From assembly GCA_023664535.1 (NCBI GenBank), contig JAMPFJ010000018.1:1-62891 (forward strand): a stretch of DNA of 62,891 nt, written 5' to 3'. Below, one piece after another: positions 40,880 through 62,839 of the stretch. The first letter of the stretch is position 1; each line of letters starts with the position of its first letter. The stretch comes from Bacteroidales bacterium (lineage in GTDB: Bacteria > Bacillota > Clostridia > Lachnospirales > Lachnospiraceae). Under the pieces are notes generated by a model. That model was given only the letters and a program-made list of their open reading frames with translations. It had not been told where the DNA came from and did no database searches. The position numbers were made by a program, and so were the translations under genes.

Positions 40880-41698
40880 ATGACAGAAGTAGAGAATTTA
40901 TCCGTTGGTGAAAGGTTATTGTTGCTTCGGGACAAGCATAATATGACACAGGAGGATTTGGCAAAAAAACTTGTAGTCAGCCGGCAATCTGTTTCAAAAT
41001 GGGAATTGAATAAAGCACTGCCGGATATGGATAAGCTGATTCAGCTGGCAAAACTTTATCAGGTTAGTATAGATTATCTGGTTATGGGGAATGAACCGGC
41101 GGAACGTCAAATAAAAGAAGATATTTTGCTGAAGCAGGAGACGGTGATTACACAGGAGCAGGATATCGTAGAGAAAGAGGAAGGCAATCAGGTACAGAGC
41201 GGATATCAACAGCATGAAACAGAGCAAAATACAATAGAGGGTGACGATGGGATAATAGGCAAGGGTAAGGATGAAAGGAGAATCAGAGGACAGGATATTC
41301 TTGTAAGAAAGTATATTTTGCTGATTTGCATCCTGTTTAGTGGAATATTATGTTTTATGACGTTGATTATTGCCGGGAAAATCTTATCGGGGTATGGCAA
41401 CGATGTCCGCGATAAAGAACAGGAGATGGTTCAGGTTGACAGGATATATGAACAATATACCAAAGCAGAGGTAAAAGGCAGCACGGAGGATGGGAGAACC
41501 TTTAGGAAAATTGTTGTATTGGATGTGCCGGGAGTAAAAGAGGATGATACCATCCAGTGCTATATAAATTCAGGGAATCCCCTTTTTGAATACTATGCAA
41601 AAACAGTATGGATGATAATTGGGTTTGGAATAGTCATATTTTTGTTTTTTCTTGTATTTTTGCTGGAATTTATAAGATTAAAGCCAGACAGATATTGA
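40880..41698 (+). CDS. XRE-family regulator with a C-terminal membrane domain
   Basis: The 272-residue protein has an N-terminal helix-turn-helix (SVGERLLLLRDKHNMTQEDLAKKLVVSRQSVSKWELNKALPD, given here as residues 8-50), a charged linker, and two membrane spans (about 150-172 and 245-268) enclosing a short extracytoplasmic domain. Such membrane-bound XRE proteins can sense surface signals. It is transcribed in the same direction as the secretion locus, about 100 bases before the protease gene, and is a candidate regulator of it. Membership of the locus is inferred only from position. Confidence 0.82.
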   Translation: MTEVENLSVGERLLLLRDKHNMTQEDLAKKLVVSRQSVSKWELNKALPDMDKLIQLAKLYQVSIDYLVMGNEPAERQIKEDILLKQETVITQEQDIVEKEEGNQVQSGYQQHETEQNTIEGDDGIIGKGKDERRIRGQDILVRKYILLICILFSGILCFMTLIIAGKILSGYGNDVRDKEQEMVQVDRIYEQYTKAEVKGSTEDGRTFRKIVVLDVPGVKEDDTIQCYINSGNPLFEYYAKTVWMIIGFGIVIFLFFLVFLLEFIRLKPDRY

Positions 41699-41796
41699 AG
41701 GAGAAGGAGGAACGAGTGTGAGGTGAGAGGCGGGATAACGAGATAAACGGCATATTTACAAAAACTAAAGAAGAAAGCGAATGAGGATGATGGAAA

Positions 41797-43434
41797 ATGA
41801 AAAAACGGATTAGCGTGTATTTAAGCATAGTTATGTTAATGGTATTCTTTTCGACCGGAATAACCGTTATGGCAGATGAAAATTATACGGAGAAGAATAA
41901 GGACAGTATTGTCCAGGTCGTTGTGCAGTATGCGGTAGACGGAGGAGAAACTATTGTATTGCAGAGCGGGAGCGGGATTGTTGTTGACAGCAATACGGTT
42001 CTGACCAATTACCATTTAGTACATTTAACGAAAAGAATCAGAAAAAAGACCAGGGAGTATATATTAGGAAAAACCGGTGCAGATGTGGATTTAAAAAATG
42101 ACAACGGGGTCAGCATTTCTGTTGTAAATAAGGGGGATAAGCTGATTAGTGCGGAAATTGTGGACGAGAGCCAGGAGGATGATTTTTGCATGCTCACCCT
42201 GTCGGAGGAGATAGAGCGTTCGGCGGCAGCACTGGGTGACAGCGATACGGTTTCTGTCCCTGCAAATGTAATTGCTATCGGTTATCCGACAATGGATGCA
42301 TTTAAAGAAAATGTGACATTTTTTAAACCGTCGGATGTGAATCTTGTTACCGGAGTTGTTTCAGAGGTGACCAATGAAAATATCCGGGTTGGCACCAAAA
42401 TTTCAAAGGGTAATTCCGGCGGAGCGTTGATTGACGCATCCTCGGGGGCTGTAGTGGGAATGCTGGTTTTTGATTCTGCGGATAACAAGAAAGAGTGTTT
42501 TCGTGCCTTGCCCATCAATCATTTGAAGGAATATATGCAAAATATTGCCTATACGGATGTGAGTGCAGCTGAGAAGACTACCCAGGAGGAAGTGTCAACA
42601 GAGGAAGTGGTTGTTCCCACGGACAGAACGAAGCTGGATGCAGCTATTGCCGAAGCAGAGCAAAAGGACAAAGCATTATATACGGAAGAAAGTTATACGA
42701 TGATGACCAGCTGCCTGGAGCAGGCAAAAATAATCCAGCAAAAGAAAGAGGCAGTGCAGGATGAAATAGATGCGGCGGAAAAATTGTTAAATGACGGGAT
42801 AGGCAATCTGGAAGAGGTTAGTACATTTAACTGGACAATAGTAATTATCGGTGCCTCGGTGGTTTTGGTCATCCTTATTATTATCATTATTGTCATTGTA
42901 TGTGTGACAAGCGCAAAACAGAAAAAGAAAAATGAGTTTACCACGATTCCGGGAAATGCAGCCGGCGCTTATTCGGGACAAAACAATATGCAGATGCCGA
43001 ATACGCCGGGAGGTACGCCGCCGATGAACGGTGCAGGAGGCAGTGATGCGGGAAAGGTCGGTGCAACAACGGTACTAAAGCCGTCTGAAAGCAACAAATC
43101 CCAGGGAACTACGGTGTTAAACAGCGGACCAATGCAAATGAGCGCATATTTTGTCAGAACAAAGACAAATGAGAGAAATATGATTACTTCCCAGGAATAT
43201 ATAGTGGGAAAAGATGCGGCAGTGGTTCATTATTGCATTGCCGACAATGCTGCCGTCAGCCGGTGCCATATGAAAATTGTGAAACGTGGGATGAATTATT
43301 TTTTGATAGATTTAAATTCCACAAATAATACTTATTTAAATGGAAAACGGGTCATGCCGAATAAGGAGCAGGTATTAAACAGCGGGGATGTGATTTCGGT
43401 AGCAGACGAGGAATTTGTGTTTGAGATAAAGTAG
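41797..43434 (+). CDS. Membrane trypsin-like protease with a cytosolic FHA domain
   Basis: The 545-residue protein has a signal/anchor at 5-25, an extracytoplasmic trypsin-like domain (H73 in TNYHLV, D129 in EDDFCML, S207 in GNSGGAL), a helical FIVAR-like stretch (277-340), one membrane span (346-371), a Gly/Asn/Pro linker, and a C-terminal FHA domain (467-545) with conserved GKD, VSRCH and NSTNNTYLNG. FHA domains bind phosphothreonine. The linker holds two TTVL motifs (424-427 and 438-441), similar in place to the phosphorylated ETT site of GarA-type FHA proteins. The PP2C and kinase genes follow. It may couple surface proteolysis to kinase signalling. Confidence 0.88.
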   Translation: MKKRISVYLSIVMLMVFFSTGITVMADENYTEKNKDSIVQVVVQYAVDGGETIVLQSGSGIVVDSNTVLTNYHLVHLTKRIRKKTREYILGKTGADVDLKNDNGVSISVVNKGDKLISAEIVDESQEDDFCMLTLSEEIERSAAALGDSDTVSVPANVIAIGYPTMDAFKENVTFFKPSDVNLVTGVVSEVTNENIRVGTKISKGNSGGALIDASSGAVVGMLVFDSADNKKECFRALPINHLKEYMQNIAYTDVSAAEKTTQEEVSTEEVVVPTDRTKLDAAIAEAEQKDKALYTEESYTMMTSCLEQAKIIQQKKEAVQDEIDAAEKLLNDGIGNLEEVSTFNWTIVIIGASVVLVILIIIIIVIVCVTSAKQKKKNEFTTIPGNAAGAYSGQNNMQMPNTPGGTPPMNGAGGSDAGKVGATTVLKPSESNKSQGTTVLNSGPMQMSAYFVRTKTNERNMITSQEYIVGKDAAVVHYCIADNAAVSRCHMKIVKRGMNYFLIDLNSTNNTYLNGKRVMPNKEQVLNSGDVISVADEEFVFEIK

Positions 43435-43489
43435 CAGAAAATGTGGTGGGTGGAGAATTGCTGCGCATTGCAGCGGAATGGAGTTCAGA

Positions 43490-44272
43490 ATGAAATGTAT
43501 TTCCGGTATATATTCTGATGTAGGGATTGAAAAAAAAGTTAATCAGGATGCTGCGCTTGTGCGGCAGGCGGCTACAAAAAGAGGAAAGGTGCTGTTTGCG
43601 GTGGTTTGTGACGGGATGGGGGGATTGGAACAGGGAGAGGTCGCAAGCGCTACCGTGATTGCCGGAATGTCTGACTGGTTTGAGCAGGTCTTTCCTAAGA
43701 TGCTGGGACATGACTTTGCACCGGAAATAATAGAGAAAAGTCTGCGGGAAGAGATTAAACGGTTGAATAACTGCATAAATATATATGGAAGAGAGAAAGG
43801 AATCAGCCTGGGGACAACCCTGGTCAGCCTGCTTTTAATCGGGGATTACTATTATGTCTGTAACGTGGGGGATTCACGGATATATTATTTGAAAGATGGA
43901 ATTGAACAAATGACGCATGACCAGTCGTACATCCAAAAAGAGATTGATTTGGGAAGGATTACGGTGGAAGAGGCAGAGAACAGTCCAAAACGCAATATGC
44001 TGTTACAGTGCATTGGAGCGAGTACGGAGGTGGTTCCCGATTTTTACCGGGGGGAATATCGAAAACCGGCATCCTTTTTGTTGTGCAGCGACGGGTTCCG
44101 GCATGTCATTACTTCTCAGGAGATGTGGGAGGCATTTCGACCGGAATTGTTAGACGGAGAGGATAGTATAAAAGAGAGAATCCGCAAATTGATTGAGACG
44201 GCAAAAAGGCGTCAGGAGAGGGATAATATTACAGCAGTCCTGGTATGTACGAAAGAGGAGAAGCCATGTTAG
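43490..44272 (+). CDS. PP2C-type Ser/Thr protein phosphatase
   Basis: The 260-residue enzyme has all the PP2C motifs: NQDAALV, VVCDGMGGLEQGE (metal site), GTTLVSLLLIGDYYYVCNVGDSRIYYL, LLCSDGF and RDNITAVLV. It is cytoplasmic and metal-dependent. The start at 43490 follows GGAG by six bases; an ATG 12 bases earlier is less well placed. The gene overlaps the kinase start by seven bases, the standard bacterial phosphatase-kinase pair, so it should reverse phosphorylation by that kinase. Confidence 0.95.
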   Translation: MKCISGIYSDVGIEKKVNQDAALVRQAATKRGKVLFAVVCDGMGGLEQGEVASATVIAGMSDWFEQVFPKMLGHDFAPEIIEKSLREEIKRLNNCINIYGREKGISLGTTLVSLLLIGDYYYVCNVGDSRIYYLKDGIEQMTHDQSYIQKEIDLGRITVEEAENSPKRNMLLQCIGASTEVVPDFYRGEYRKPASFLLCSDGFRHVITSQEMWEAFRPELLDGEDSIKERIRKLIETAKRRQERDNITAVLVCTKEEKPC

Positions 44273-45957
44273 AAATAGGAACGGTGGTAGACGGAAAATA
44301 TAAGATACTGAATGAAATCGGGCATGGTGGGATGAGCGTTGTTTATCTTGCGGTAAACGAAAGGGCAAACAAACCGTGGGCAATTAAAGAAGTACGAAAA
44401 GATGGTGTGGATAATTTTGAGGTGATTAAGCAGAGTCAGATTGTAGAGACAAATATGCTGAAAAAATTTAATCACCCCAATCTTCCCAGTATTATTGATG
44501 TCATTGACCAGACGGATTCTTTCCTGATTGTTATGGATTATATTGAGGGAAAACCGTTAAGTGAAAAGCTGGAGGAACAGGGTGCTCTTCCCTGTGAGGA
44601 TGTAGTGGAATGGGCTAAGCAGTTATGTGATGTTTTGGGATACCTGCATTCCAGAAAACCACCGGTAATATACAGAGATATGAAGCCGTCGAATGTTATG
44701 CTGAAACCGGACGGCTCGGTTATGCTGATTGATTTTGGTACCGCCCGGGAATTTAAGGAGAAAAATGTAGAAGATACAACCTGCCTGGGTACGCAGGGAT
44801 ATGCAGCGCCGGAACAGTTTGGCGGGCAGGGACAGACTGATGCAAGAACGGATATATATTGTCTGGGCGCAACGATTTATCATCTGGTGACCGGGCATAA
44901 TCCCAGCGAACCTCCATATGAAATGTATCCGATTCGGCAATGGAACCCTGCACTTTCATCGGGATTGGAAAAGATTATTATAAAGTGTACGCAGAGAAAT
45001 CCGAATGACCGTTATCAGTCCTGTGCGGAACTTCTATATGCACTGGAGCATTATAAGGAAGAAGAGGAAGAGTATAAAAAATTACAAAATATCAAATGGT
45101 ATCTTTTTCTGACATCGGCGGTGCTTACTCTTTTTATGGGAGCGCTGACGCTGGGATGCCATGTAATGATTAGTAAAAAAACAAAAAGCACATATGATGA
45201 ATATATTAATACTGCGCTGCTGGCAGTAAGTGCGGAGGAAAAAATTAAATATTATGAGGATGCAATTCAATTATCGCCCCAAAGAGAGGAAGCATATATA
45301 GAATTACTGGAAACTATGGGACAGGATGGTATATTTACGGAGGAGGAAAGTCAGATTATCCGGAGAATTATGCCACAGTATATCGGGAAGCTGGAAACGG
45401 AGCAGGAAGCGTATATAAAGATAGCATACGAACTGGGAATGATGTATTTTTACTACTATGAAAATTCAGAAGATATGCAAAATGCAGCCAGATGGCTTGA
45501 TATAGCGATTGGAAATACAATGGAGGGAATAACGGAGGAACAAATTAACATGATTTTAAGTCAGAAAAAAGCGTTCCGCGCAAGACAACTCCATAGTATC
45601 GTTCAATATTACCAGGATTTAAATGTGACCAATAAGGAGGGTGATGCCGAAGGAAGTTATTTTCAGCTGTGGGAGGATTTATCCTCTGTTGTTACAGCAG
45701 ATATTGCAAAAGAGGACAACAATGTTACGGCATTGGTCATGTACAATTTCATGGCAAATCAGTTAATTGTACATGCACAGGATTATATGGAGGCGGGCGT
45801 TTCGCAGGATGCCATGGCGGATATGTTAAATATGATGGATTTGTGCGGTAGATATGATGAGAAAAATGATTACCAGCGTGAACTATATGACAAGCTTCGG
45901 AATAATCTGCAACAGGCAAAAAAAGCAGTGGAACTGGCATTTTCTACGGTGGATTAG
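44266..45957 (+). CDS. Transmembrane Ser/Thr protein kinase (EssB-like topology)
   Basis: The 563-residue protein has an N-terminal Hanks-type kinase with every key residue: Gly loop GHGGMSVV (19-26), K41 in AIK, E61, D138 in YRDMKPSN, D156 of DFG, and GTQGYAAPE. One membrane span (278-302) follows, then a helical C-terminal domain of about 260 residues outside the cell, with TPR-like helices and no PASTA repeat. This is the topology of the T7SS subunit EssB/YukC (cytosolic pseudokinase, one span, helical outer domain), but with an active kinase. I infer it takes that place in the machine. The ATG at 44266 follows GAGGAG. Confidence 0.93.
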   Translation: MLEIGTVVDGKYKILNEIGHGGMSVVYLAVNERANKPWAIKEVRKDGVDNFEVIKQSQIVETNMLKKFNHPNLPSIIDVIDQTDSFLIVMDYIEGKPLSEKLEEQGALPCEDVVEWAKQLCDVLGYLHSRKPPVIYRDMKPSNVMLKPDGSVMLIDFGTAREFKEKNVEDTTCLGTQGYAAPEQFGGQGQTDARTDIYCLGATIYHLVTGHNPSEPPYEMYPIRQWNPALSSGLEKIIIKCTQRNPNDRYQSCAELLYALEHYKEEEEEYKKLQNIKWYLFLTSAVLTLFMGALTLGCHVMISKKTKSTYDEYINTALLAVSAEEKIKYYEDAIQLSPQREEAYIELLETMGQDGIFTEEESQIIRRIMPQYIGKLETEQEAYIKIAYELGMMYFYYYENSEDMQNAARWLDIAIGNTMEGITEEQINMILSQKKAFRARQLHSIVQYYQDLNVTNKEGDAEGSYFQLWEDLSSVVTADIAKEDNNVTALVMYNFMANQLIVHAQDYMEAGVSQDAMADMLNMMDLCGRYDEKNDYQRELYDKLRNNLQQAKKAVELAFSTVD

Positions 45958-45976
45958 TTTATTTGGAGGAGAATAG

Positions 45977-46396
45977 ATGGATATAGCCACATATCGAACA
46001 TTGTTTACGGTGTTTCTGATTCTGACAATAATTTTTGCTGTTCTAACGGCGGTTTTGTTTTTTTTGTTTGATATAAAAAAAATAATCAGTGTGAAAACGG
46101 GATATGCCGTAAGAAAGAGCGTTAAACAGGTAAATGCGCTGAATCAGAAGGAGAATGAAGAACAAAAGATAAAGAAAAAAGCAGCATTAAATCAGAGAAA
46201 AACAGTGTCTTCTGAAGCGACAGCCGTGTTGGAGAATGAAAGAGAACGAGACGGGAAACGTGTTGTGGAAGAGCGTCATTTGCCAATTTCTGATGAGCCA
46301 AATACAGAGGAAGGATTTGAGATTATTGAAACGAAACAGATAAGGACATCGGAAGTCATTATTGACGGGCATGGCAAGATTAAAAGGATTGTGTAA
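45977..46396 (+). CDS. Small membrane protein with charged cytosolic tail
   Basis: A 139-residue protein with one N-terminal span (8-33) and a long, highly charged tail rich in Lys, Glu and Arg, ending in a short hydrophobic beta-like segment (FEIIETKQIRTSEVIIDG). The tail has several Thr and Ser residues (KTVSSEATAV, NTEEGFE) that could be kinase targets. No family recognised. The ATG follows GGAGGAG, 20 bases after the kinase stop, so it is in the same operon. Confidence 0.75.
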   Translation: MDIATYRTLFTVFLILTIIFAVLTAVLFFLFDIKKIISVKTGYAVRKSVKQVNALNQKENEEQKIKKKAALNQRKTVSSEATAVLENERERDGKRVVEERHLPISDEPNTEEGFEIIETKQIRTSEVIIDGHGKIKRIV

Positions 46397-46437
46397 TTGC
46401 AGGTGATGGAATTAAAAAATAGGCAGGAGGAAGTGTA

Positions 46438-48252
46438 ATGAAGAAAAAAAGTGTAAAAGGATTTCGGACAGGAAAGAGGATTTTAATATGGGGAATGATG
46501 GCGGTAATGGCATTATCGGCAAAGCTTCCGGCAGCGGCGGCGGTGACCGGTGCGGATTTAGCGAATCCTGTGGTGGATGAAAGCACGCATATAATGTATG
46601 GGAGCCATGAGGTAAACTATAAGTATATTTATTTTGGTTTATTTCCGCAGAAAGAAATCTGGGGAGATGAGCTGACGGATGCAATCCGGAATGCTGCTTA
46701 TGACAAAAATGGTGTCGGCTGGGTAAATGGGAGAAAATATCAGCGAATGTCTTATGATATGATTCCGGAAGATATTAATATAACGAGAGAGAGATGGAAC
46801 CATTATTGTCCGGAGGGATATCTGTACTTTCTATATGAGCCGGTTAAATGGAGGATATTGGAAAACAATAACGGAACATTATTTTTGCTGTCGGATAAGG
46901 CATTGGACGCAAGAAGGTATGATTCAGGCTATTCCGCTACATGGGAAACCAGCGAATTGAGAAAATGGTTAAATGATGACGGAAGCAAAGAGGTAACGTA
47001 TATCAGCTCAAAGCATTATGATACTCCGGGAATTTTATTGCGGGGATTTACCGCAGAAGAACGGAGTCGAATAAAGATTACGCATCTGCAACAGGACGTT
47101 AATCCGGAATATGGGACCAGTAATGGAGCGGATACGGAGGATAAGGTATTTATATTAAATTATACGGAATCAACAAATATCAAATACGGATTTTGTGATG
47201 TTAAGAGAAGCAGCCGGAACTGTTCCTCCAGAGATATAGCGAATACGGATTATGCAATGCGTATGCATCCGTACGGTTATTTTGGAAGAGAGGATTTTGC
47301 GGAGTTTGTAGCAACACCTAACGGCTCATGGCTTCGTACAAAGGGAGAGGATTCTTTTACAGAAATGAGAATGATTAAGGAGATGGATAAAGGGTGGCAG
47401 GTAAATACTACCCAGACAGTAGTTCCGGCGATGAAGATAAGCTGTGCGCCGGCAGAATGTATACGTATTTCTTTTGTGACCAATACCAATACCGGGGTAG
47501 AGGAGCAGATTATGCTTGGAAGTAATTATGCAAAGGAGCCGGAAGCATTAACAAAGACCGGTTACAAATTTACGGGATGGTATACGGATGCAGCATGTAC
47601 CCAAACCTATGCGTTTAATGAAAAGCTGACAAAGGATACTGTTTTATATGCCGGATGGGAAAAGGAGCCGCTGCCCGAAGATTCGACAATAAAGGATGCG
47701 GGAGCAGTGTATAGTGTCATATCCTCTGAACACAGGACGGTGGAATATAGAGGAACAGCAAAGGGAAAACAAGCAAAAAAGGCCACTATTCCGGCAACGA
47801 TAACTTATGACGGGATTACTTATCAGGTGGCGGCAGTTGGGGAAAAGGCATTTAAGAATAACAAAAAACTGAAAACGGTGACTATTGGAAAAAATGTAAC
47901 GCAGATAAAGGCGGAAGCGTTTAGAGGCTGCACAAAGCTGAAGAACGTGACTATCGGAAAAAATGTAACGCAGATAAGAGCCAAAGCATTTATGGGTTGT
48001 AAGAGCCTTGAGACAATAGCTGTAGGCAGAAAAATGAAAACAATAGGTGCAGAGGCATTCCGGGGATGTAAAAAGCTTCGTCTGATTACATTTAAGACAA
48101 CAAAATTAAAAGCAGTAGGGAAAAATGCATTTTATCAGGTAAACAATAAAGCAAAATTCAAAGTGCCAAAGAAGAAATATAAGGCATATAAGAAGCTGCT
48201 GGCAAAAAAGAAAACGGGTTATGCAAAAACAATGAAAATAAAAAAATACTAA
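46438..48252 (+). CDS. Secreted protein with DUF6273-like, InlB-type and BspA-type repeats
   Basis: The 604-residue protein has a signal peptide (ending PAAAA), an N-terminal domain of the DUF6273 kind (VKWRILENNNGTLFLLSDKAL...WETSELRKWLN), an InlB-type (Flg_new) repeat (GYKFTGWYTD...LYAGWEK), and BspA-type leucine-rich repeats (EKAFKNNKKLKTVTIGKNV and two more) before a basic KVPKKKYKAYKKLL tail. Its tail is like that of the subtilase at 34853-39085. It is in line with the T7SS genes and probably acts at the surface, perhaps for adhesion. Ligand unknown. Confidence 0.82.
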   Translation: MKKKSVKGFRTGKRILIWGMMAVMALSAKLPAAAAVTGADLANPVVDESTHIMYGSHEVNYKYIYFGLFPQKEIWGDELTDAIRNAAYDKNGVGWVNGRKYQRMSYDMIPEDINITRERWNHYCPEGYLYFLYEPVKWRILENNNGTLFLLSDKALDARRYDSGYSATWETSELRKWLNDDGSKEVTYISSKHYDTPGILLRGFTAEERSRIKITHLQQDVNPEYGTSNGADTEDKVFILNYTESTNIKYGFCDVKRSSRNCSSRDIANTDYAMRMHPYGYFGREDFAEFVATPNGSWLRTKGEDSFTEMRMIKEMDKGWQVNTTQTVVPAMKISCAPAECIRISFVTNTNTGVEEQIMLGSNYAKEPEALTKTGYKFTGWYTDAACTQTYAFNEKLTKDTVLYAGWEKEPLPEDSTIKDAGAVYSVISSEHRTVEYRGTAKGKQAKKATIPATITYDGITYQVAAVGEKAFKNNKKLKTVTIGKNVTQIKAEAFRGCTKLKNVTIGKNVTQIRAKAFMGCKSLETIAVGRKMKTIGAEAFRGCKKLRLITFKTTKLKAVGKNAFYQVNNKAKFKVPKKKYKAYKKLLAKKKTGYAKTMKIKKY

Positions 48253-48281: not shown

Positions 48282-51200
48282 ATGAAAAAATACTTGCATA
48301 CAGCATGGAAAAAATGGATAGCGTTTTTATTAACAATATGTATAGTGATATCTAATATGAATACAGGAAGTTTAGTATGGGCGGCAGAGGAATCGGCAGA
48401 ATACACCGTTCAGTGTACAATTATGCAGAATAATCAGGCTGCGATTTCAATTCCTGACAATATGGTATCAATAATGGAGGGAGATAATCGGATTACCGGA
48501 ATCCAGGGAAAATATTTCTTAAAAAAGAATACAAAGTATACTTATAAAATTTCAGGAAAAGAAATTGATGCAGAAGGAACGATTACGACCGGTGAAGAAG
48601 AAGTTATTGCTATTGGGATTGATAAAGATAAATTAAAAGTTATCTATCCGGATAGGATTTATGTAGGGCAAAAAGCAGTACCGGAATCGGATAATCTGGT
48701 ATCCGGCTGTACATGGTCGCTTTCTGATGCTTCTGAACCGTATGCGGATATTGTGGAAGAAACAGGAGAAATAACAGGGAAAGCTGCGGGTACCATAAAG
48801 GTCGTGAAGACCTATGGCGCAACGGGTATTACAGTTACGCAAACGCTAAATGTAGAGGAAAAGAGTAAGCAGTTTTCCCTGAAGTATAAAGTAAATGATG
48901 AAGTATGGGAAAATGAGATAGCCGACAAAGATGTGCAGATTATGGCGGATGGAAAACCGATTGACATAACAGAAGGAAAATGCATGCTGATATGTGGGAG
49001 GAAATATACTTACTCCATAAAAAAGAATGGATTTACAGAGGAGGAGCAAATCTTTACTGCGCCTGCAGAGGGAACTGATAATGTGGTAAATCTCAGCTTC
49101 AAATTAGTGCTGCCTGAGCTTACAGCGGACGGAAAAGATTTAGGGGATGTAAATACAAAAATAAAGACAGGTGCGAAAAACCTTCCGATACAGTGTTCAA
49201 ATAGTAATGCCCTGTATGGAAATATCAAAAACTGGAGTGTACAGATTGGTGCAAATTCGCTGGAAATAAATGCTGCCATGAAGATTGCTGAGGTAAAGAA
49301 AAACCAGGAAATCCGATTTTTATACTTGGATAAGGATGTAGGTGGGGTTACTCTCAATACCTTTGATAATTACGAAATAGAAATGCAGTATGCAAAAGGT
49401 GGGACAACGATTAGCATAAGCGGTAATCCAACGCTGAAAGACAGTAAAGGAACGGCATGTACGTTAAATGACCTGAAAGCAGGATGTGCCTATACGGTTG
49501 ACCAGACTAATGTTACAGGATGTACCTATACAGATGATGAGAAGAAAAAGGTTAAATTTGTACCGACTTTCTATGATGAAAAAATTACCCTCGCTTTAAA
49601 TGAATCAAATTTTTCGATAACTAAACCGGAAATACAGGTGGGAACAGGCAATGGTGCTGACTATATTGGAACATATGGTGATAAAGTAAGTTTAAAGGTT
49701 AAAAATGAAGATAAATTATTTAAGGGGAATAGGGGAGGCTGGTCATGGGAACCCATTGGCGAAATTAAAAATCAGTTAAATATTGCAAATAATAAATTAA
49801 CCCTTGGAGGTATAGGCAAGGCGCAACTAAAATATGTTTATAAAGTGGATAATAAAGTAATTTGTGAAAGCAATGAGATTAACATAGAAGTAGAGAAAAT
49901 TAAATTGAATTTTCAAAAAAACGCTACGCTGAAAGCGGAAAAAAGAACCTATGATTTTACAAACATTTTTAAAATAGAATGTAATGCAGGGGATAATGCT
50001 CTGTTTTATGTGGAGAGGTTAAATAATAACGACTTTGTCATGGACGATACACTGGTTATAACCGGACAGGTGGAAAGCGAAAATGTAAAATATACCCAGG
50101 CGGCTCCAGACAAAGAGCTTGATTCCTATAAAGAGCTTACAATAGTAAGCGTAGAGCGAAAAGGTGTTTCCTCAGAAGATATTTATGATTTCACCAATCT
50201 GGAAGGGAAGAAAATCAAGGTTAAAGATGCAATTATTACACCGGTAACATTGTATACAAAGATAGGCACGAAGAAAAACTTGATTTCTGTACAGTACAAT
50301 ACAAAAAAAATAGATGATGAGAAAACAAAATTGGCTATTCAGTTTTTTGAAAAGAATGACAGTACTGAAGAAATGGGTTTGGATATAGAGCTAAAAACAA
50401 AGTTTAAAGAAGATATATATGGCAGAATAGGGGAATTTAAGATTGAGAATGAAGCTGACAGAATTGGTTCTTTTTCTAAGATAACTGAGCCCGGTAAAAG
50501 TATCAAAGATGAAAATGGTAATGTTGAATATATTTTTTCTTCCGTACAATTTAAATTTAATTATATACCGGAAATTATTGATTATTTAGCTTATGAGGAT
50601 TTGGAGGTTGAATTACGTCAAAATAATGAAGAAAAAATAAACGGAAGCTGGATTAACAGCACAGATATTGAAGCCGTTATTCACAGAAAAGACTATCAAC
50701 AAGCATATTCACAGATAAATTTTCAAAAGATATCCGAGGCTGAACTGAAACAGGGAAAAATTGCGTGTCAAGCTGAAATAAGCGAGGCTTTGCCGGAGCT
50801 GCGGGTGGACACAAATGTGCAGGAACAGTATTATAGAATGATTTTCTCCTTGCAGGGCAAGTATGCAACGGTAGCCGCCGTTATCCGTATAATCAGCCAG
50901 AGCGCAGAAGAAGATAAAAGTTATCCGGAGAAACTAGAAGCCTCGGATGGTAATACCTATAAAGTAATCAACCTGTTTTTGTCGGAGAAAGCGGGGAAAG
51001 TCACCTTGGAAAACTCCGAAGGCATAGAAATGCATGAAGTCACCGGAATGAATGCGAATGAGATGATAAAGGAGATAAAGCAGAGCGGGGCTGGCAAAGA
51101 CGGGAAAAAGGAGCTTGCCTTCAGGGTGGAAAATGAAGGAGCAGAGCTTAGGGAAGTTTCCTATGCATACATACCATATGAAGAGGTTAAAAAGTTGGAT

Positions 51201-54200
51201 GTGCCAACGGTACAGCAGTGGAGCATAGTAACTGAGCCGTGGATAGGCGTCCACACGGTTTCGCTGCCTAATGATGAAAAGGATTATATTCTGCTGGTCA
51301 AGACCGTCAATGAAGCGAATGTGAAATCGGTTTACGCTTCGGATGTTTTTGTTATCGATTGGACAAGGCCGAAAATCAGAGCCACATACAAGGAGACGCT
51401 TCCCAATAGGAGTACTGCGCCCGGATTCAGTGAGGCGGAACGGGATTACCGGAGTACCGGAACAGATGAAGAGGGTAAAAGCAAAGGGCTGGTCCTGAAG
51501 ATAGAAATTGAGGAAAAGCATCTGAAAGAGGCGAATATCGAGCTGACGGCGACGGATTTTCATGGAGAGACAATTGAAGAGGCACTACTGAAAGAAGAGA
51601 AAGAAAAGTTCGAGAATGAACTGCTGAAAAACCAAAAGGATGGAATCTGTACGGCGGAATTGTGTTTTTTTACCGATGCAAATTATACATTAAGGATTAC
51701 AGCCAAGGATGTATCGGGAAACAAAGGTATCCGGCATACAGAAGAGGAAAACGGCGCAGAGGAAGAGGCGGTGTACTATTTTACCCTGGACAATGGGGCG
51801 CCGGAAGAGGGAGAAATCCGGGTAAAGGGGAGAAAGCGGGAAGTAGAGGAAAACGAAGGAAAGAAAAAGGGAATCATTACTACAATCCGGAAAGCTGTGG
51901 AAGGCATATGGAGCCTGGCAGCCGGAGATGCGGCGGAAATGCTGTTTACCCGGAACAGGGCGGTCATCACGATGAGCGGAGAGGACCGGATTTCGCCGGT
52001 AACGCTCTCCTATTTTATCACAGACCATGAGATGGGGGTGCAAGAGCTTGGCAAAGCGGCATGGACAGCCTATGACAGGGCAGCTCCGCCGAAAACGGAG
52101 CTGAACCGGAACAGCAGGGTATATGCCCGGGTGGAGGATGAGGCGGGAAACATCAGCTATTTCGGTTCGGAGGGGATTATCTCGGACAACGAGGAGCCGG
52201 AGATAGAGGTGGAGTTCAAGAAAAAGCCAAACGAAAAGGGCTTTTACCACGGAGACGTGCAGTTTACAGTGGAAGTGACAGAAAAAACGGCAGCCGTGAA
52301 CGGCGCAGCATCCGGACTGAAGCTGGTGAGCTGGCGGACAGAGAACGGGAAAGAGGTAACGAAGGCAGAGACGGTGTATGAGGGAAACGAAACCGATGCA
52401 TCGGTAAAACGGAAAAGCTTTACGGGAAAAGCAGGGGCAGAGGAAAACAACAGCAACAGCGTTACGCTGTATGTGACGGCAGTGGACAATGCGGGAAACC
52501 GGACGGAATACAAAAAAGAACTGAAAATAGACAGGGTAAGACCGGAAATCACGGTGAGCTATGACAATAACCGGATGGAAAACGGAAGGTACTATAACGA
52601 ACCGCGGACAGCGACGGTGCGGATAAAGGAAAGGAATCTGGATACGGGGAAAGTAAGGCTTACGGCAGAGGGAAGCGGAGGAGGAAAGGCATTTATTGGA
52701 GCGTGGAGCAGCCCTGCGGAAGCAGGGAAGTCAGATGAGGCAGAGTATACCTGCCAGGTAAGCTTTACGGAGGATGACGATTATGTGTTTACCGTTTCCT
52801 GTGAGGATGAGGCGGGAAACCGAAGCACCGGGGATTACCATGAAGAGTTCACGCTGGATACAACAAAGCCGGAAATCAGGGTGAGTTATAACGGAAGAGA
52901 GCCGGAAGAGGATGCATATTATAACGAGGAGATAACGGCGGAGATAACGATAACGGAGCATAACTTTGATGCGGCAAAGGTAAGGGTGCGGACTGAAGGA
53001 GGAAGCGGACAGGGAGGGGAAGCCCTTGTAACGGGATTCCGGAGCAGCGGGGACGTACATACGGCAGAGGTAAGGTATGACCGGGACGGGGAGTACCGTT
53101 TGACGGCTGCTTATACAGACGAGGCAGGAAATGCGGCAGAGGAGTATGCAGGGAAGCGGTTTGTGGTGGACATGACAGAGCCGGAAATAGAGATAATCAA
53201 TGTGGGAAACCGTTCGGCGAATGCCGGGGAGGTAAAGCCGGTAGTTATCTGCCGGGACGAAAATTATGAGGAAAGCCTGGTGGACATCACGCTGTCTGGA
53301 GCCAACAGCGGGGAGCTGAAGCTTGCAGAGGCAGGTTATGCCAAAGAGAAAACGGAAGAAGGGGGCAGGTTTGCTTTTGATTTCCCGAAAACGGAGAAAA
53401 TGGATGATGTGTATGTGTTAAAGGCGGAGATAAAGGATAAGGCAGGAAACGGGAAGAAAGCGGAAGTGGAGTTTTCGGTGAACCGCTACGGCTCAGTGTA
53501 CACATTGGGGACGGAAACGGGAGAATGGCTGGAGAGCGGAGTATGCGCCTATGTGCGGGATGCCAGGGAAGTGGAGATAATCGAGACGAACGTAAATGAA
53601 ATCGTGGAGAGTAAAATTACCTGCAGCCATGGAGGAGTCGGTGGAGACACGGCGGAGATAAAGGAAATTGGAGAATGCAGTGGAGAAGAGAGGGAAGCAG
53701 GGCGGTACTACGAGAAATGGGACGTACCGGAGGAAAGAGGCTGGAAGAGGAAGAGTTATACTATAGCAGCAGCAAATTTCGGAGAGGAAGGAACGTACCG
53801 GATAAACATTTATTCCCGGGATGAAGCAGGAAATGAGACGAGCAGTGTAAGCAACCGGCATGCAGGAGGAAAGCTTTCGGTGGAGTTTGCAGTGGACAGG
53901 ACAGCGCCGAGCATTGTGTTTTCAGGAGCTGAGGATGGAGGGATGTACAATGAAGCGGAGCATACGGTGCTGGTAGATGTACAGGACAATATCGCCCTGT
54001 CAGAGTTTACGGTGTATGTGGACGGAGAGGAATACGGAAGATATACGGAAAAGGAGCTGAAGGAGTACGGAGATGGCCTTGTGCCGGTAAAGGTGGAGCA
54101 GTCCCTGGCAAGACAGAGGATTCAGGTGAAGGCGGAAGACAGGGCAGGGAACCGTACCGGAGAAGAGGAAGGGAAAGAACCGGAGGGAATCAGCATACTG

Positions 54201-54326
54201 GTTACGACCAATGGTTTTGTGCGCTTTATGAACCGGTCATGGCTGCTTGTAGTGGTACTATTGCTGCTTGCCGTAGCAGCAGTTAGCTACATCGTCTACA
54301 GAAGGAAGAGGGAAAGCATAAAATAG
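48282..54326 (+). CDS. Giant surface protein with Ig-like repeats and a C-terminal membrane anchor
   Basis: The 2014-residue protein has a signal peptide (YLHTAWKKWIAFLLTICIVI), a long N-terminal region of weak beta-type repeats, and in its second half a series of Ig-like domains, each ending with DEAGN or DKAGN motifs followed by a segment such as DTTKPEIRVSY. A membrane span near 1980-2003 with a short basic tail (RRKRESIK) anchors it. The first half of the gene is AT-rich and the second (from about 51.4 kb) is markedly GC- and purine-rich, so it looks like a mosaic. It may form a wall-spanning stalk for the secretion system. Binding partners unknown. Confidence 0.8.
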   Translation: MKKYLHTAWKKWIAFLLTICIVISNMNTGSLVWAAEESAEYTVQCTIMQNNQAAISIPDNMVSIMEGDNRITGIQGKYFLKKNTKYTYKISGKEIDAEGTITTGEEEVIAIGIDKDKLKVIYPDRIYVGQKAVPESDNLVSGCTWSLSDASEPYADIVEETGEITGKAAGTIKVVKTYGATGITVTQTLNVEEKSKQFSLKYKVNDEVWENEIADKDVQIMADGKPIDITEGKCMLICGRKYTYSIKKNGFTEEEQIFTAPAEGTDNVVNLSFKLVLPELTADGKDLGDVNTKIKTGAKNLPIQCSNSNALYGNIKNWSVQIGANSLEINAAMKIAEVKKNQEIRFLYLDKDVGGVTLNTFDNYEIEMQYAKGGTTISISGNPTLKDSKGTACTLNDLKAGCAYTVDQTNVTGCTYTDDEKKKVKFVPTFYDEKITLALNESNFSITKPEIQVGTGNGADYIGTYGDKVSLKVKNEDKLFKGNRGGWSWEPIGEIKNQLNIANNKLTLGGIGKAQLKYVYKVDNKVICESNEINIEVEKIKLNFQKNATLKAEKRTYDFTNIFKIECNAGDNALFYVERLNNNDFVMDDTLVITGQVESENVKYTQAAPDKELDSYKELTIVSVERKGVSSEDIYDFTNLEGKKIKVKDAIITPVTLYTKIGTKKNLISVQYNTKKIDDEKTKLAIQFFEKNDSTEEMGLDIELKTKFKEDIYGRIGEFKIENEADRIGSFSKITEPGKSIKDENGNVEYIFSSVQFKFNYIPEIIDYLAYEDLEVELRQNNEEKINGSWINSTDIEAVIHRKDYQQAYSQINFQKISEAELKQGKIACQAEISEALPELRVDTNVQEQYYRMIFSLQGKYATVAAVIRIISQSAEEDKSYPEKLEASDGNTYKVINLFLSEKAGKVTLENSEGIEMHEVTGMNANEMIKEIKQSGAGKDGKKELAFRVENEGAELREVSYAYIPYEEVKKLDVPTVQQWSIVTEPWIGVHTVSLPNDEKDYILLVKTVNEANVKSVYASDVFVIDWTRPKIRATYKETLPNRSTAPGFSEAERDYRSTGTDEEGKSKGLVLKIEIEEKHLKEANIELTATDFHGETIEEALLKEEKEKFENELLKNQKDGICTAELCFFTDANYTLRITAKDVSGNKGIRHTEEENGAEEEAVYYFTLDNGAPEEGEIRVKGRKREVEENEGKKKGIITTIRKAVEGIWSLAAGDAAEMLFTRNRAVITMSGEDRISPVTLSYFITDHEMGVQELGKAAWTAYDRAAPPKTELNRNSRVYARVEDEAGNISYFGSEGIISDNEEPEIEVEFKKKPNEKGFYHGDVQFTVEVTEKTAAVNGAASGLKLVSWRTENGKEVTKAETVYEGNETDASVKRKSFTGKAGAEENNSNSVTLYVTAVDNAGNRTEYKKELKIDRVRPEITVSYDNNRMENGRYYNEPRTATVRIKERNLDTGKVRLTAEGSGGGKAFIGAWSSPAEAGKSDEAEYTCQVSFTEDDDYVFTVSCEDEAGNRSTGDYHEEFTLDTTKPEIRVSYNGREPEEDAYYNEEITAEITITEHNFDAAKVRVRTEGGSGQGGEALVTGFRSSGDVHTAEVRYDRDGEYRLTAAYTDEAGNAAEEYAGKRFVVDMTEPEIEIINVGNRSANAGEVKPVVICRDENYEESLVDITLSGANSGELKLAEAGYAKEKTEEGGRFAFDFPKTEKMDDVYVLKAEIKDKAGNGKKAEVEFSVNRYGSVYTLGTETGEWLESGVCAYVRDAREVEIIETNVNEIVESKITCSHGGVGGDTAEIKEIGECSGEEREAGRYYEKWDVPEERGWKRKSYTIAAANFGEEGTYRINIYSRDEAGNETSSVSNRHAGGKLSVEFAVDRTAPSIVFSGAEDGGMYNEAEHTVLVDVQDNIALSEFTVYVDGEEYGRYTEKELKEYGDGLVPVKVEQSLARQRIQVKAEDRAGNRTGEEEGKEPEGISILVTTNGFVRFMNRSWLLVVVLLLLAVAAVSYIVYRRKRESIK

Positions 54327-54344
54327 AAAACAGGAGAGGAAAAA

Positions 54345-60037: not shown

Positions 60038-60042
60038 AGTAA

Positions 60043-60765
60043 ATGATTTCAATATTCATTTGCAGCAGTGAACAGGAGGAGCTTGCTGAATTACAGAAAG
60101 TGTCAAAGGACATAGTGGCTCAGCTTGGTGATGAGCGTTTAGATATTACAACGTATTCCCTGCAGAAGAATACAGAATTTCCTTCATTTGATTGTATGGA
60201 TGTTGCCTTTGTGGATATTACGGAGCGTGGGGGCCTGGAAATGGCGAAATGCATACGGAAGCAGTTTGCCAGGGCAGAAATTGTAATTATATCAGATAAG
60301 AGGATTTCGCCGGTAATGTACCTTACACCGGATATCCGTGCAGCGTCCCTGATTATGAAACCGTTTGTATATAAGGAAATGTTTTGGCAGCTTGAAAAGG
60401 TTTTTCAGACCCTGAATCTGGAGGAGGAAGAATCAGGCGGTTTTCTATTACTGAAGGAAAAGGATGAAAAAATCCGTATACCCTATTCAAGAATTTTATA
60501 TTTTGAATACAGGGATAAACGAATACATATCCGGTTGCAGAGCAGAGAATACGGAATGTACGGGACCATGGAAGAGTTGGTTCAGATGCTGCCGGTTACT
60601 TTTAGACGCTGCCATAGAAGCTTTATTGTCAATATGAATTATATAAGCAGGATTCGCTATGCAAAAAATAAAATCGTGTTAAAGGATGAAATAGAAATAC
60701 CTTTATCCAGAAGCTATAAGCTGAATATGAAGGAGATAATCAGGGATGAATCAGAAAGTAAGTGA
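60043..60765 (+). CDS. LytTR-type response regulator
   Basis: The 240-residue protein has a receiver domain with D58 in VAFVDITERGG as likely phosphoacceptor and K106 in LIMKPF; the usual N-terminal acidic pair is replaced by SSEQEE, so the receiver is atypical. Residues 140-235 form a LytTR DNA-binding domain (RILYFEYRDKRIHIRLQS and FRRCHRSFIVNMNYI). It begins six bases after essC ends, inside the operon. No sensor kinase is next to it. It may control the locus itself. Confidence 0.92.
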   Translation: MISIFICSSEQEELAELQKVSKDIVAQLGDERLDITTYSLQKNTEFPSFDCMDVAFVDITERGGLEMAKCIRKQFARAEIVIISDKRISPVMYLTPDIRAASLIMKPFVYKEMFWQLEKVFQTLNLEEEESGGFLLLKEKDEKIRIPYSRILYFEYRDKRIHIRLQSREYGMYGTMEELVQMLPVTFRRCHRSFIVNMNYISRIRYAKNKIVLKDEIEIPLSRSYKLNMKEIIRDESESK

Positions 60766-61450
60766 AGCCTATATTCTTACGCCGTTAGAATTTAATATTC
60801 TTGCTGCCGGAAAGGATATACCGAATATAGTCGCTTTACAGCAGCAGGCGGCGCAGCTTGAGGAAAGGGATGTCTGCTATGCAATGGATACGCTTTATCG
60901 GCAGCGGTTGATAAGAAAAGCAGAAGAAGGTTTTCAAGTGGAAACGGAATTGGCAGATATTTTGGATGGGATTGCCAAAGCGGAGTTTCTGCTTTTGGCA
61001 AAAAGCCAAAAAAGGGATTCCGGAATAATTTATTTTGGGGAAAAGGTGGTGTGTGCTGAGCAGAGCCAGGCAGACCAATCGGCATTGAAGTTATATACCT
61101 TAGAGAAAAAGGAGACGTTGGCTTTAATAGAGGGATGGATGCAAAAAGAGGAGCAGCAAATTTACCGAAATATTCCGGATGGGGAAGAGCTGCCGTTGAA
61201 CATACTGAAGAAAAGCAGTGTGCTGGAAAAAAGCGATTGGGAAAAGCTGCCGGGGATAATAGTAATTCTTGAAGGAGTAAGCTGCCGGAACCGGCAGGTA
61301 GTGAAAAGGCTGGCGGTTTATCAGAGAGAAGGAGAGAAGCAATTTATTTACATTCAGCGTGGAAATATGAGGAAAGGTAAATATGAAAGGACACAGTTAA
61401 TAGCTATAGTAAAGGATATGGTAGAGGAGGAAGCATATGATATTGGTTGA
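60746..61450 (+). CDS. Unknown cytoplasmic protein of the T7SS operon
   Basis: The 234-residue protein overlaps the LytTR gene by 20 bases and the YukD-like gene by 14, so it is part of the operon. The N terminus (LTPLEFNILAAGKDI...DVCYAMDTLYRQRLIRK) looks like a winged helix; the rest is mixed helix and strand without recognised motifs. It lacks signal and membrane segments. It could be a secretion chaperone or adaptor similar in role to EspG, but sequence gives no proof. Confidence 0.72.
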   Translation: MNQKVSEAYILTPLEFNILAAGKDIPNIVALQQQAAQLEERDVCYAMDTLYRQRLIRKAEEGFQVETELADILDGIAKAEFLLLAKSQKRDSGIIYFGEKVVCAEQSQADQSALKLYTLEKKETLALIEGWMQKEEQQIYRNIPDGEELPLNILKKSSVLEKSDWEKLPGIIVILEGVSCRNRQVVKRLAVYQREGEKQFIYIQRGNMRKGKYERTQLIAIVKDMVEEEAYDIG

Positions 61451-61685
61451 TGTTTATATTCCGTCATTAGATGAGGTGTATGATTTTAAGGTGGATGAAA
61501 CTGCAAAGATTATAAATGTAGTACAGGAAATCAGTGAAATGATTTGTAAAAAGTATAAGACAGAGCTCAATGAAGAATCAAAGAATTTCTTTCTTTGTTC
61601 AGTGGAAAACGGAGAAGTTCTCAACAGTAATTCGACGCTGGCAGAAAATAAAATTTATAATGGAAGCAGGCTGTTTATAGTTTGA
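61437..61685 (+). CDS. esaB: YukD/EsaB-like ubiquitin-fold protein
   Basis: The 82-residue protein fits the YukD/EsaB family: MILVDVYIPSLDEVYDFKVD starts the beta-grasp, a helix follows (VQEISEMICKKY), and it ends NKIYNGSRLFIV. It is a small cytoplasmic accessory part of type VIIb systems with a regulatory role. The gene overlaps the preceding one and is followed by a 145-base gap with a possible promoter. Confidence 0.85.
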   Translation: MILVDVYIPSLDEVYDFKVDETAKIINVVQEISEMICKKYKTELNEESKNFFLCSVENGEVLNSNSTLAENKIYNGSRLFIV

Positions 61686-61830: not shown

Positions 61831-62187
61831 ATGAGTATGATAGAAGTTTCAATTACTGGCTTGAAAACGGTGATAGATGAATTGCAGGTTTGTCAGACGG
61901 CGTTTAGGAGAGAGATAGATTTATATGAACAGATTTTAACGGATATGGACATCCAACAGGATAATCAATCAGCGTTAAAAAAGATTTTGGAAGATTTAAA
62001 TGAAGAATACGCTTTGATGAAAAGATGGAGGAGGGTATTAGAAGAGAGTATTCGATGCTATGAGGATGTCGAGAAACAGATTATCAGGAAACCGGTTACT
62101 TCATTTTCCCATTCACTTATCCTTAAAACAGTTGAAATAAATGAGGTAAAAGAAGTATTAAAAAAATACCATATTAATTTTATATGA
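61831..62187 (+). CDS. Small helical protein preceding the WXG100 genes
   Basis: A 118-residue, mainly helical protein, with LIDELQ-like heptads early and ...WRRVLEESIRCYEDVEKQI in the middle. It has no WxG motif. The start at 61831 or the next ATG six bases on cannot be told apart. The position and size suggest a partner or chaperone of the WXG100 proteins, like the small helical companions of LXG effectors. Its stop overlaps the frame that opens at 62184. Confidence 0.7.
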   Translation: MSMIEVSITGLKTVIDELQVCQTAFRREIDLYEQILTDMDIQQDNQSALKKILEDLNEEYALMKRWRRVLEESIRCYEDVEKQIIRKPVTSFSHSLILKTVEINEVKEVLKKYHINFI

Positions 62188-62204
62188 CGTGGTGGAGGTA
62201 TGAA

Positions 62205-62510
62205 ATGGCAGTTTCAAAAATCAAAGTCAATACGGGTTCTTTGAAAAAGGATACCGATTCGATTGAAAATCATTTGAAGAACATTAAGAGCCAGATTAAG
62301 CAGATGAAAGCAGATGTAAAAGAGCTGGATAGTATGTGGGATGGTGAAGCCAATGATGCATTTAATGCGGCATTTCAGAGTGACCTTAACGATTTGGATA
62401 CGGTCTGCAACAATATTCAGGGGATAATTGACTACGAGAAAAATGCGAAAAAAGAATATGATTCCTGCGAGGTAAAAGTGGCTGATTTGGTTAAAAGTAT
62501 AACGGTATAG
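62205..62510 (+). CDS. WXG100 family protein 1 (EsxA-like)
   Basis: The 101-residue helical-hairpin protein has MWDGEANDAF at the turn, the WxG signature, flanked by two long amphipathic helices, so it is a T7SS substrate. The start at 62205 is chosen because GGAGG lies before it. The C-terminal YxxxD/E-type export signal is plausible: YEKNAKKEYDSCE. Confidence 0.92.
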   Translation: MAVSKIKVNTGSLKKDTDSIENHLKNIKSQIKQMKADVKELDSMWDGEANDAFNAAFQSDLNDLDTVCNNIQGIIDYEKNAKKEYDSCEVKVADLVKSITV

Positions 62511-62521
62511 GAGGAATACAT

Positions 62522-62839
62522 ATGGCATCAATCATATTAAAGGTTAAACCGGAGGATTTAAAGAATAAGTCAAAAGAAATTCAGAAGAATATTGATACAA
62601 TCAAAAAAGAATTTGACGAAATAGGAACAGTTATCCGGGGAACGAAGAAATATTGGGAAGGCGAAGCAAGTAATCAGCATGTCCAGAGCTTTGAAAAAAT
62701 GAAGGATGATATTGAAACGATAGTTAAGCGCTTAAAAGAGCATCCAAAGGATTTGGAAACCATGGCGGGGGTTTACGAGGAAGCCGAGCGGGGAGCAGAG
62801 CAGATAGCAGCAGCCCTGCCAATAGATTTGTTTGATTAG
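62522..62839 (+). CDS. WXG100 family protein 2 (EsxB-like)
   Basis: The 105-residue protein has YWEGEASNQ as WxG turn between two helices; the C-terminal part (LETMAGVYEEAERGAEQIAA) holds a YxxxE motif (YEEAE) typical of T7SS export signals. It begins 12 bases after the first WXG100 gene, behind GGAGG, so the two may form a heterodimer. The window ends 52 bases after its stop. Confidence 0.93.
   Translation: MASIILKVKPEDLKNKSKEIQKNIDTIKKEFDEIGTVIRGTKKYWEGEASNQHVQSFEKMKDDIETIVKRLKEHPKDLETMAGVYEEAERGAEQIAAALPIDLFD

What the first reader, a model, noticed from the sequence alone, without database searches (positions are those of the whole stretch)
40880..62839. Type VIIb secretion locus wired to a Ser/Thr kinase, PP2C phosphatase and FHA domains
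Seen: EssC, YukD-like and two WXG100 genes sit in one strand-uniform locus with a PP2C phosphatase, an active transmembrane kinase, a membrane protease with FHA, a degenerate-FHA protein, and EssC with FHA. Overlaps of 1-20 bases indicate operons. Known: in type VI secretion a kinase-phosphatase-FHA trio (PpkA/PppA/Fha) triggers assembly; canonical Firmicute T7SS lacks such a trio, using a pseudokinase (EssB). Inference: here T7SS assembly or firing is gated by threonine phosphorylation, a phospho-regulated T7SS that I do not know as a described system.
Basis: partly seen in the sequence, partly recalled or inferred. Interest (0 to 1): 0.88.

Follow-up and report, generated by a model that had tools for sequence, protein, structure and literature searches.

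The report
Phospho-gated type VII secretion, protease-linked variant
This stretch of DNA encodes a type VII protein-secretion system together with its own kinase, phosphatase and phosphate-reading FHA proteins, one of them a membrane protein with a protease domain; kinase-bearing systems of this kind were published in 2024, this is a new variant of them, and its secretion is likely switched by threonine phosphorylation.

Summary
In detail: 15 plus-strand genes (40880-62839) encode EssC, a YukD-like protein, two WXG100 proteins, a kinase, a PP2C and three FHA proteins. The novelty claim does not: Garrett et al. 2024 (PMC11217815) described T7SSc-j, several with such kinases, phosphatases and FHA proteins, and proposed phospho-control with the T6SS analogy. 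It is not T7SSb: the genome has no EssB and the EssC lies outside the T7SSb clade.

What is new: a Lachnospiraceae EssC clade beside T7SSd/e, with a mosaic locus. The PP2C-kinase-TsxH-(LRR)-TsxI cassette is T7SSe-like. The core reads EssC-LytTR-EspG-fold chaperone-YukD. TseJ's place is taken by a trypsin-TM-FHA protein; each triad position is kept in 43 of 46.

A Thr-x-[Val/Leu/Ile]-Leu motif recurs in tandem in TsxH tails and twice in the protease linker. In a scan of 2312 proteins the ten best scorers were all TsxH. I infer these are phosphothreonine docking sites, resembling the GarA/OdhI ETTS site; phosphorylation itself is untested. The window's own TsxH has one copy. A new variant of a known kind.

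The parts
40880..41698 (+). Cro/CI-type HTH protein with C-terminal TM segments; possibly a regulator of the locus (membership uncertain)
   Evidence: PF01381 E=1.1e-16; two hydrophobic segments
41797..43434 (+). Signal/TM - trypsin-like protease - TM - linker - FHA protein, in the place TseJ holds in T7SSe
   Evidence: PF13365 8.8e-18, PF00498 5.5e-15; H73, D129 and S207 each conserved in 43 of 46, FHA S/R/H/N in 45 of 45 ungapped rows
43066..43077 (+). first TTVL motif in the protease-FHA linker (residues 424-427), predicted phosphothreonine docking site
43108..43119 (+). second TTVL motif in the linker (residues 438-441)
43478..44272 (+). PP2C/PPM phosphatase (TsxF)
   Evidence: PF13672 8e-12; metal-binding aspartates conserved in 45-46 of 46 aligned PP2Cs
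44245..45957 (+). Hanks-type Ser/Thr kinase, TM, all-helical extracytoplasmic domain (TsxD)
45977..46396 (+). 1-TM protein with disordered-looking cytoplasmic tail (TsxH); one T-x-V-L motif at 46220-46231
46438..48252 (+). secreted DUF6273 / Flg_new / BspA-LRR protein (insertion in the cassette; role unknown)
48282..54326 (+). 2014-aa protein with N-terminal hydrophobic segment, Ig-like domains and C-terminal TM (TsxI)
   Evidence: Big_13 3.1e-18, Big_3_3 5.4e-12; phmmer hits to the Ig proteins of L150 and L116
54345..54938 (+). TM-FHA protein with degenerate phosphothreonine site, directly upstream of EssC in 8 other clade loci
   Evidence: PF00498 2.5e-5; layout, relatives; sequence lacks the SxxH and N residues
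54995..60037 (+). EssC/TsxC ATPase with N-terminal FHA (probable start about 55034)
   Evidence: PF01580 1.3e-51, FHA 3.7e-12; TIGR03928 1096 bits; tree
60043..60765 (+). LytTR transcriptional regulator
   Evidence: PF04397 9.4e-23; directly 3' of EssC in 12 of 16 clade loci with sequence there
60746..61450 (+). EspG-fold chaperone (TsxG)
61437..61685 (+). YukD-like ubiquitin-fold protein (TsxB)
   Evidence: PF08817 6.7e-5, 24.0 bits, under the 27-bit cut-off
61831..62187 (+). 118-aa small protein in WXG100/Lap position, found in several clade loci
62184..62510 (+). WXG100 protein (TsxA)
   Evidence: PF06013 2.5e-11
62522..62839 (+). WXG100 protein (TsxA2)
   Evidence: PF06013 7.2e-11

Best explanation
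The locus encodes a type VII secretion machine (EssC, YukD-like protein, WXG100 pair, a chaperone predicted to have the EspG fold) together with a membrane kinase, a PP2C phosphatase and FHA proteins, and its assembly or firing is likely gated by threonine phosphorylation. Shown: gene content, conserved kinase and phosphatase active sites, conserved phosphothreonine-binding residues on EssC and on the protease FHA, a confident EspG-fold model, and a T-x-[VIL]-L motif repeated in TsxH tails and twice in the protease linker. Inferred: the kinase senses an envelope or contact signal through its helical outer domain and phosphorylates the threonines of those motifs. The phosphorylated tail of TsxH and the protease linker then dock the FHA domains, gathering EssC and the protease at one site, and the phosphatase resets the system. 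Untested: that the kinase uses these sites, that FHA binds them, that secretion depends on it, and what the outer trypsin domain cuts.
For: Co-occurrence within the clade: kinase 9 of 11, PP2C 9 of 11, against 0 of 7 EssB-type loci. The protease-FHA gene is in 8 of 397 family genomes, own included; 7 of 8 have PP2C and a kinase directly downstream, and all 8 genomes carry an EssC, 7 of them the window type. Kinase catalytic residues invariant in 19 of 19. PP2C aspartates 45-46 of 46. The EssC FHA S/T-H-N triple is intact in 11 of 11 clade loci with at least 12 kb of flank and in 0 of 7 T7SSb loci (labels). Motif: 44 of 46 protease linkers have TT[x]L and 42 have two or more, shuffled mean 0.6. 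In an unbiased scan of 2312 proteins the ten best were all TsxH, the 1-TM protein encoded next after the kinase; 82 T-x-[VIL]-[LM] copies in 15 TsxH tails.
Against: No phosphorylation was or could be measured. The window's own TsxH has a single motif copy (p about 0.05 alone). Two of 11 clade loci (G134, G101) show no kinase, and two (G134, G142) no PP2C, in the stretch held. 29 of 51 named T7SSe/d-type loci with at least 9 kb downstream show neither kinase nor PP2C there. In that group an intact EssC FHA goes with a nearby kinase/PP2C (19/7 against 3/22), but the pattern rests on about three changes of the FHA state on the tree and is not significant after correction. The five vWA-FHA proteins of sister loci lack the TT[x]L motif.
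Confidence: 0.6

Rival explanations
1. It is an ordinary T7SSe as published, with local gene shuffling.
For: Same order F-D-H-I as in Bacillaceae loci L104 and L106, F-D-H in L105 and L107; kinase 37% identical to theirs and 42-43% to those of L121, L166, L150; TsxA, A2, B, C present.
Against: EssC falls outside the clade that holds Neobacillus, Paenibacillus and Clostridium cibarium, 31% identical to G544 of that clade. No DUF6382 TseJ at the locus, though the paper says all T7SSe loci have one. EspG-fold and LytTR genes are extra.
Confidence: 0.25
2. FHA domains dock phosphate-independently, as EssC FHA does on the EssB pseudokinase in T7SSb; the kinase is mainly a scaffold.
For: T7SSb precedent, read in PMC11217815; same kinase-TM-helical layout; the 197-aa FHA is degenerate.
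Against: Kinase and PP2C active sites and the phosphothreonine pocket are conserved, which a scaffold does not need.
Confidence: 0.15
3. The kinase-phosphatase-FHA cassette is a separate envelope-stress pathway that happens to sit beside T7SS genes.
For: Cassette lies upstream; in G766 it stands beside a second, distant EssC (34% identical) while the window-type EssC is on another contig, and in G684 only distant EssC genes were found; genus-mate G584 has only a distant EssC (34%).
Against: In all 8 genomes the cassette comes with an EssC, though only 40 of 150 family genomes have one at E<=1e-60; the homologous F-D-H-I genes sit inside T7SSe loci.
Confidence: 0.12
4. The signalling output is transcriptional, through LytTR or HTH, and EssC activity is not touched.
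For: LytTR directly follows EssC in 12 of 16 loci; IreK-dependent transcription of T7SSb in Enterococcus, cited in PMC11217815.
Against: No FHA match in the LytTR protein, while EssC itself has a conserved FHA.
Confidence: 0.1

Closest known systems
T7SSe / T7SSd (Garrett, Higginson, Palmer 2024, PMC11217815)
   Same: WXG100 (pair in e), TsxC with conserved FHA site, TM kinase, PPM phosphatase (e), 1-TM TsxH, Ig-like TsxI; phospho-control already proposed
   Different: EssC in a separate neighbouring clade; TseJ replaced by protease-TM-FHA; extra EspG-fold chaperone, LytTR and TM-FHA proteins; the tandem T-x-x-L motif in TsxH and in the FHA linker is not mentioned in the parts of the text read
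T7SSi (same paper)
   Same: FHA-bearing TsxC, TsxB, EspG-like TsxG, LytR-like regulator
   Different: T7SSi has kinase-like TsiM without outer domain, a poorly conserved FHA motif and no clear TsxA; no named T7SSi reference could be placed in the tree here
T7SSc (same paper)
   Same: kinase, PPM phosphatase, EspG-like G; sister loci here also carry a vWA protein
   Different: TscC lacks FHA; vWA there is cytoplasmic, here (sister loci) fused to TM and FHA
T7SSb (Staphylococcus, Bacillus subtilis)
   Same: EssC architecture, YukD, WXG100
   Different: no EssB pseudokinase; EssC outside the T7SSb clade; no kinase or PP2C at 7 of 7 T7SSb-type loci examined
T6SS PpkA/PppA/Fha
   Same: kinase, phosphatase and FHA act on secretion by threonine phosphorylation (works like; from the discussion of PMC11217815 and recall)
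   Different: unrelated machine
GarA/OdhI with PknB/PknG
   Same: phosphorylatable ETTS motif in an FHA protein, N-terminal to the FHA domain (motif from passages of PMC8546545; its position recalled)
   Different: soluble metabolic regulators; here repeated and membrane-anchored, phosphorylation untested

Membership tests
T7SSe | two WXG100 proteins and YukD-like TsxB | tested here: met
   (YukD under cut-off at 24 bits)
T7SSe | TsxC with N-terminal FHA and conserved phosphothreonine motif | tested here: met
   window G131 K132 S147 H150 N169; R replaced by K
T7SSe | TM kinase TseD and PPM phosphatase TseF | tested here: met
T7SSe | TseH and TseI | tested here: met
   position, 1-TM tail and Ig-like domains with TM; H similarity weak (20-21 bits to two loci)
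T7SSe | TseJ (DUF6382 + FHA) at the locus | tested here: not met
   none at the locus; two DUF6382 matches on other contigs
T7SSe | TseK (1 TM, short cytoplasmic stretch) | tested here: inconclusive
   no sequence of a named TseK was at hand; the TM-FHA protein is a poor match by description
T7SSe | TsxC inside the TseC clade | tested here: not met
   quick tree, midpoint root: outside the clade holding Neobacillus; the paper's own TseC set was not available
T7SSb | EssB (YukC) | tested here: not met
   0 of 1 own genome at E<=1; no hit in class-1 loci
T7SSb | EssC inside the T7SSb clade | tested here: not met
   TIGR03928 nevertheless scores above its cut-off
T7SSb | EssA and EsaA | not tested
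   only a sub-cut-off PF10661 match in the protease linker region
T7SSi | FHA-bearing TsxC with TsxB, EspG-like G and LytR-like N | tested here: met
T7SSi | TsiC clade membership; TsiM | not testable with these tools
   no named Vallitalea locus among the 79 named loci

The most novel reading that the evidence does not exclude
TsxH is a membrane-anchored phosphothreonine barcode: its tandem T-x-[VIL]-L repeats are written by the TsxD kinase, erased by the TsxF phosphatase and read by FHA domains on the EssC motor and on exchangeable sensor proteins (protease, vWA or DUF6382 heads). In this new Lachnospiraceae subtype the barcode recruits a surface protease to the secretion channel, so one phosphorylation event opens the motor and arms a protease outside.
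Probability: 0.4. Interest if true: 0.78.

Novelty: new variant of a known kind. Interest (0 to 1): 0.6.

Why it matters
How non-mycobacterial type VII machines are switched on is an open question. The published proposal of phospho-control names writers and readers; in the parts I read it names no docking site. The repeated T-x-x-L motif in TsxH and in the FHA linker gives a short, concrete site that can be tested with peptides. The protease-FHA protein would link an intracellular phospho-signal to an enzyme outside the membrane, and the different heads (protease, vWA, DUF6382) on FHA proteins at the same place suggest a modular input or output to the same switch.

Tried and rejected
T7SSb label: rejected. 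Plain T7SSe: rejected as membership, kept as rival. Kinase as an EssB relative: profile comparison of the kinases with EssB gave probability 0.4, and EssB chains are not among the 50 rows shown for the kinase model, which test mainly the kinase domain; the outer helical domain was not folded alone.

Co-evolution of the EssC FHA site with kinase/PP2C presence: raw Fisher p 1.3e-5 (51 loci), but only 3 changes of the FHA state (11 of the kinase/PP2C state) on the tree and no significant independent pairs; not used as proof.

Whole-genome DNA pattern for the ETT motif: matched in 299 of 299 genomes, too common to say anything. Protein search with the 234-aa chaperone found only the window's own protein, so its relatives came from iterated searches within the fetched loci. 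Promoter and terminator scans gave near-background counts, apart from a 13-pair hairpin after rplL at 40609-40637. Literature: no paper other than PMC11217815 came up for T7SSe with type VII secretion or for two of T7SSb/c/d, and no paper with two of the motif/FHA terms; only the open PMC subset was searched.
Full report
WHAT IS THERE. Genes 40880-62839 are all on the plus strand with overlaps or short gaps. Order: HTH; trypsin-TM-FHA; PP2C; kinase-TM; 1-TM protein; DUF6273/LRR protein; 2014-aa Ig-like protein; TM-FHA; EssC with FHA; LytTR; 234-aa protein; YukD-like; 118-aa protein; WXG100; WXG100. The window is the whole of contig C9 (62891 bases), so the locus stops at a contig end. Contig C49, read from its end, begins with three WXG100 genes and another FHA protein, which fits the gene order of sister locus G137; that the two contigs are neighbours is an inference (no overlap of the ends).

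NOT T7SSb. The genome has no EssB at E<=1, and EssB was found at 7 of 8 T7SSb-type loci but at no window-type locus. In a quick tree of 65 EssC rows (midpoint root), the window's EssC groups with 15 other family genomes (16 rows, support 98; with G456/G356, of other classes, support 100). That group stands beside a clade of 31 rows (support 96) that holds Neobacillus, Paenibacillus, Cohnella, Clostridium cibarium and two Coriobacteriia contigs. The family is Lachnospiraceae as judged by two named contigs (L115, L119) whose lengths equal those of G002:C56 and G012:C2.

ALREADY IN PRINT. I read text parts 1-4 of 7 and the Discussion of Garrett et al. 2024 (PMC11217815), not its supplements. It defines T7SSc-j and reports kinases, PPM phosphatases and FHA proteins in several of them. 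T7SSe has TseA, A2, B, C, D (TM kinase), F (phosphatase), H and K (1 TM), I (Ig-like) and J (DUF6382+FHA). It states that the TsdC/TseC phosphothreonine site is well conserved and suggests control by threonine phosphorylation, with the T6SS comparison.

ARE THE PARTS WORKING ENZYMES AND READERS? Kinase residues K48, E68, D145, N150 and D163 are invariant in all 19 kinases aligned (several second kinases have DFN for DFG and lack the HRD arginine). PP2C metal aspartates are conserved in 45-46 of 46. Each protease triad position is kept in 43 of 46 and the FHA S/R/H/N in 45 of 45 ungapped rows. EssC FHA S147 and H150 are kept in 14 and N169 in 15 of 16 window-type rows, two of which hold no complete FHA. 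The S/T-H-N triple is intact in 11 of 11 window-type loci with enough flank and in 0 of 7 T7SSb loci (labels).

THE MOTIF. The linker between TM and FHA of the protease protein carries TT[VILMTA]L at least twice in 42 of 46 and at least once in 44 of 46 (shuffled linkers: mean 0.6 proteins, largest 5). Seven of 12 TseJ proteins carry it before their FHA; the five vWA-FHA proteins and nine TM-FHA proteins do not. An unbiased scan of 2312 proteins from all loci held, scoring T[TS][VILM][LM] against shuffles, put ten TsxH proteins on top (L104, L113, L105, L166, L107, G544, G684, L150, L106, G148); 27 proteins had two or more hits, of which 11 are TsxH, 8 are protease-type FHA proteins and 8 are others, three of them EssC. 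TsxH means here the 1-TM protein encoded next after the kinase; the paper's text as read does not say which of H and K stands there. Fifteen TsxH tails hold 82 copies of T-x-[VIL]-[LM], 1 to 10 each; for 13 of 15 the count exceeds shuffles at p below 0.035, for the window p is 0.046 and for G090 0.19. A sixteenth (G058, in one frame with its kinase) was left out and by eye holds none. The window's TsxH has one copy (EATAVLE). The sets are partly redundant, since some loci come from near relatives. The motif resembles the phosphorylatable ETTS motif of OdhI/GarA (passages of PMC8546545). I infer that these threonines are what the kinase writes and the FHA domains read. The passages read on TsdH and TseK call their cytoplasmic parts short and unstructured and mention no motif; a text search for it with FHA found nothing.

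RESULTS AGAINST. G134 and G101 show no kinase, G134 and G142 no PP2C, in the stretch held; 29 of 51 named e/d-type loci with at least 9 kb downstream show neither enzyme there, though in G017 and G012 the kinase lies further downstream than the first stretch reached. A strong raw link between intact EssC FHA and nearby kinase/PP2C (19/7 against 3/22) rests on about three changes on the tree and is not significant once kinship is allowed for. Genus-mate G584 has only a distant EssC (34%).

VERDICT. A real, well-conserved locus; a new variant of a published kind; phospho-gating likely but untested. The added value is the docking-motif hypothesis, the protease-FHA swap and the EspG-fold identification.

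Noticed in passing
contig C49 end of the own genome (L195, minus strand 12889-15487): Three WXG100 genes, then a 509-aa trypsin-fold FHA protein whose catalytic residues do not align (His and Ser replaced, Asp gapped) but whose FHA site is intact; likely downstream continuation of the window's locus.
   Followed up: partly
L049:14796-16691, L048:1375-3267, L051:9579-11486, L039:14855-17014 and others: A second TM kinase type in sister loci has DFN instead of DFG and lacks the HRD arginine; in some loci it stands with a vWA-TM-FHA protein.
   Followed up: partly
TseJ proteins (A5) against EssB proteins (A6): DUF6382 of TseJ aligns with the N-terminal part of EssB (hhalign probability 74, E 2.7e-5): TseJ may hold an EssB-like head.
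   Followed up: partly
27 loci between L123 and L177, mostly Bacilli contigs: A clade of e-type EssC loci in which none of 27 rows has the FHA S/T-H-N triple and 26 of 27 show no kinase or PP2C in the stretch held.
   Followed up: partly
L150, L163 (Coriobacteriia contigs): EssC loci labelled Actinomycetota with a YukD-like gene in the contig, although the paper reports none at T7SSd loci; mis-binning not excluded.
   Followed up: no
upstream of EssC in G148, G013, G090, G058, G003, G137: Proteins with a TM segment and a long further part (326-627 aa; TPR in G090) stand just upstream of the TM-FHA or EssC gene; absent in the window.
   Followed up: no
window 39544-40637: The locus begins right after rplJ-rplL and a strong terminator-like hairpin; rpoB, usually next (recalled), does not follow in the window.
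   Followed up: no
window 10634-16780 and 34853-39145: A 2048-aa GH9 cellulase with Ig-like domains and a 1430-aa subtilase with Kelch and LRR repeats.
   Followed up: no
G000 C19:26384-27649 and C48:55360-57087: Two DUF6382-FHA proteins in the own genome away from the secretion locus.
   Followed up: no
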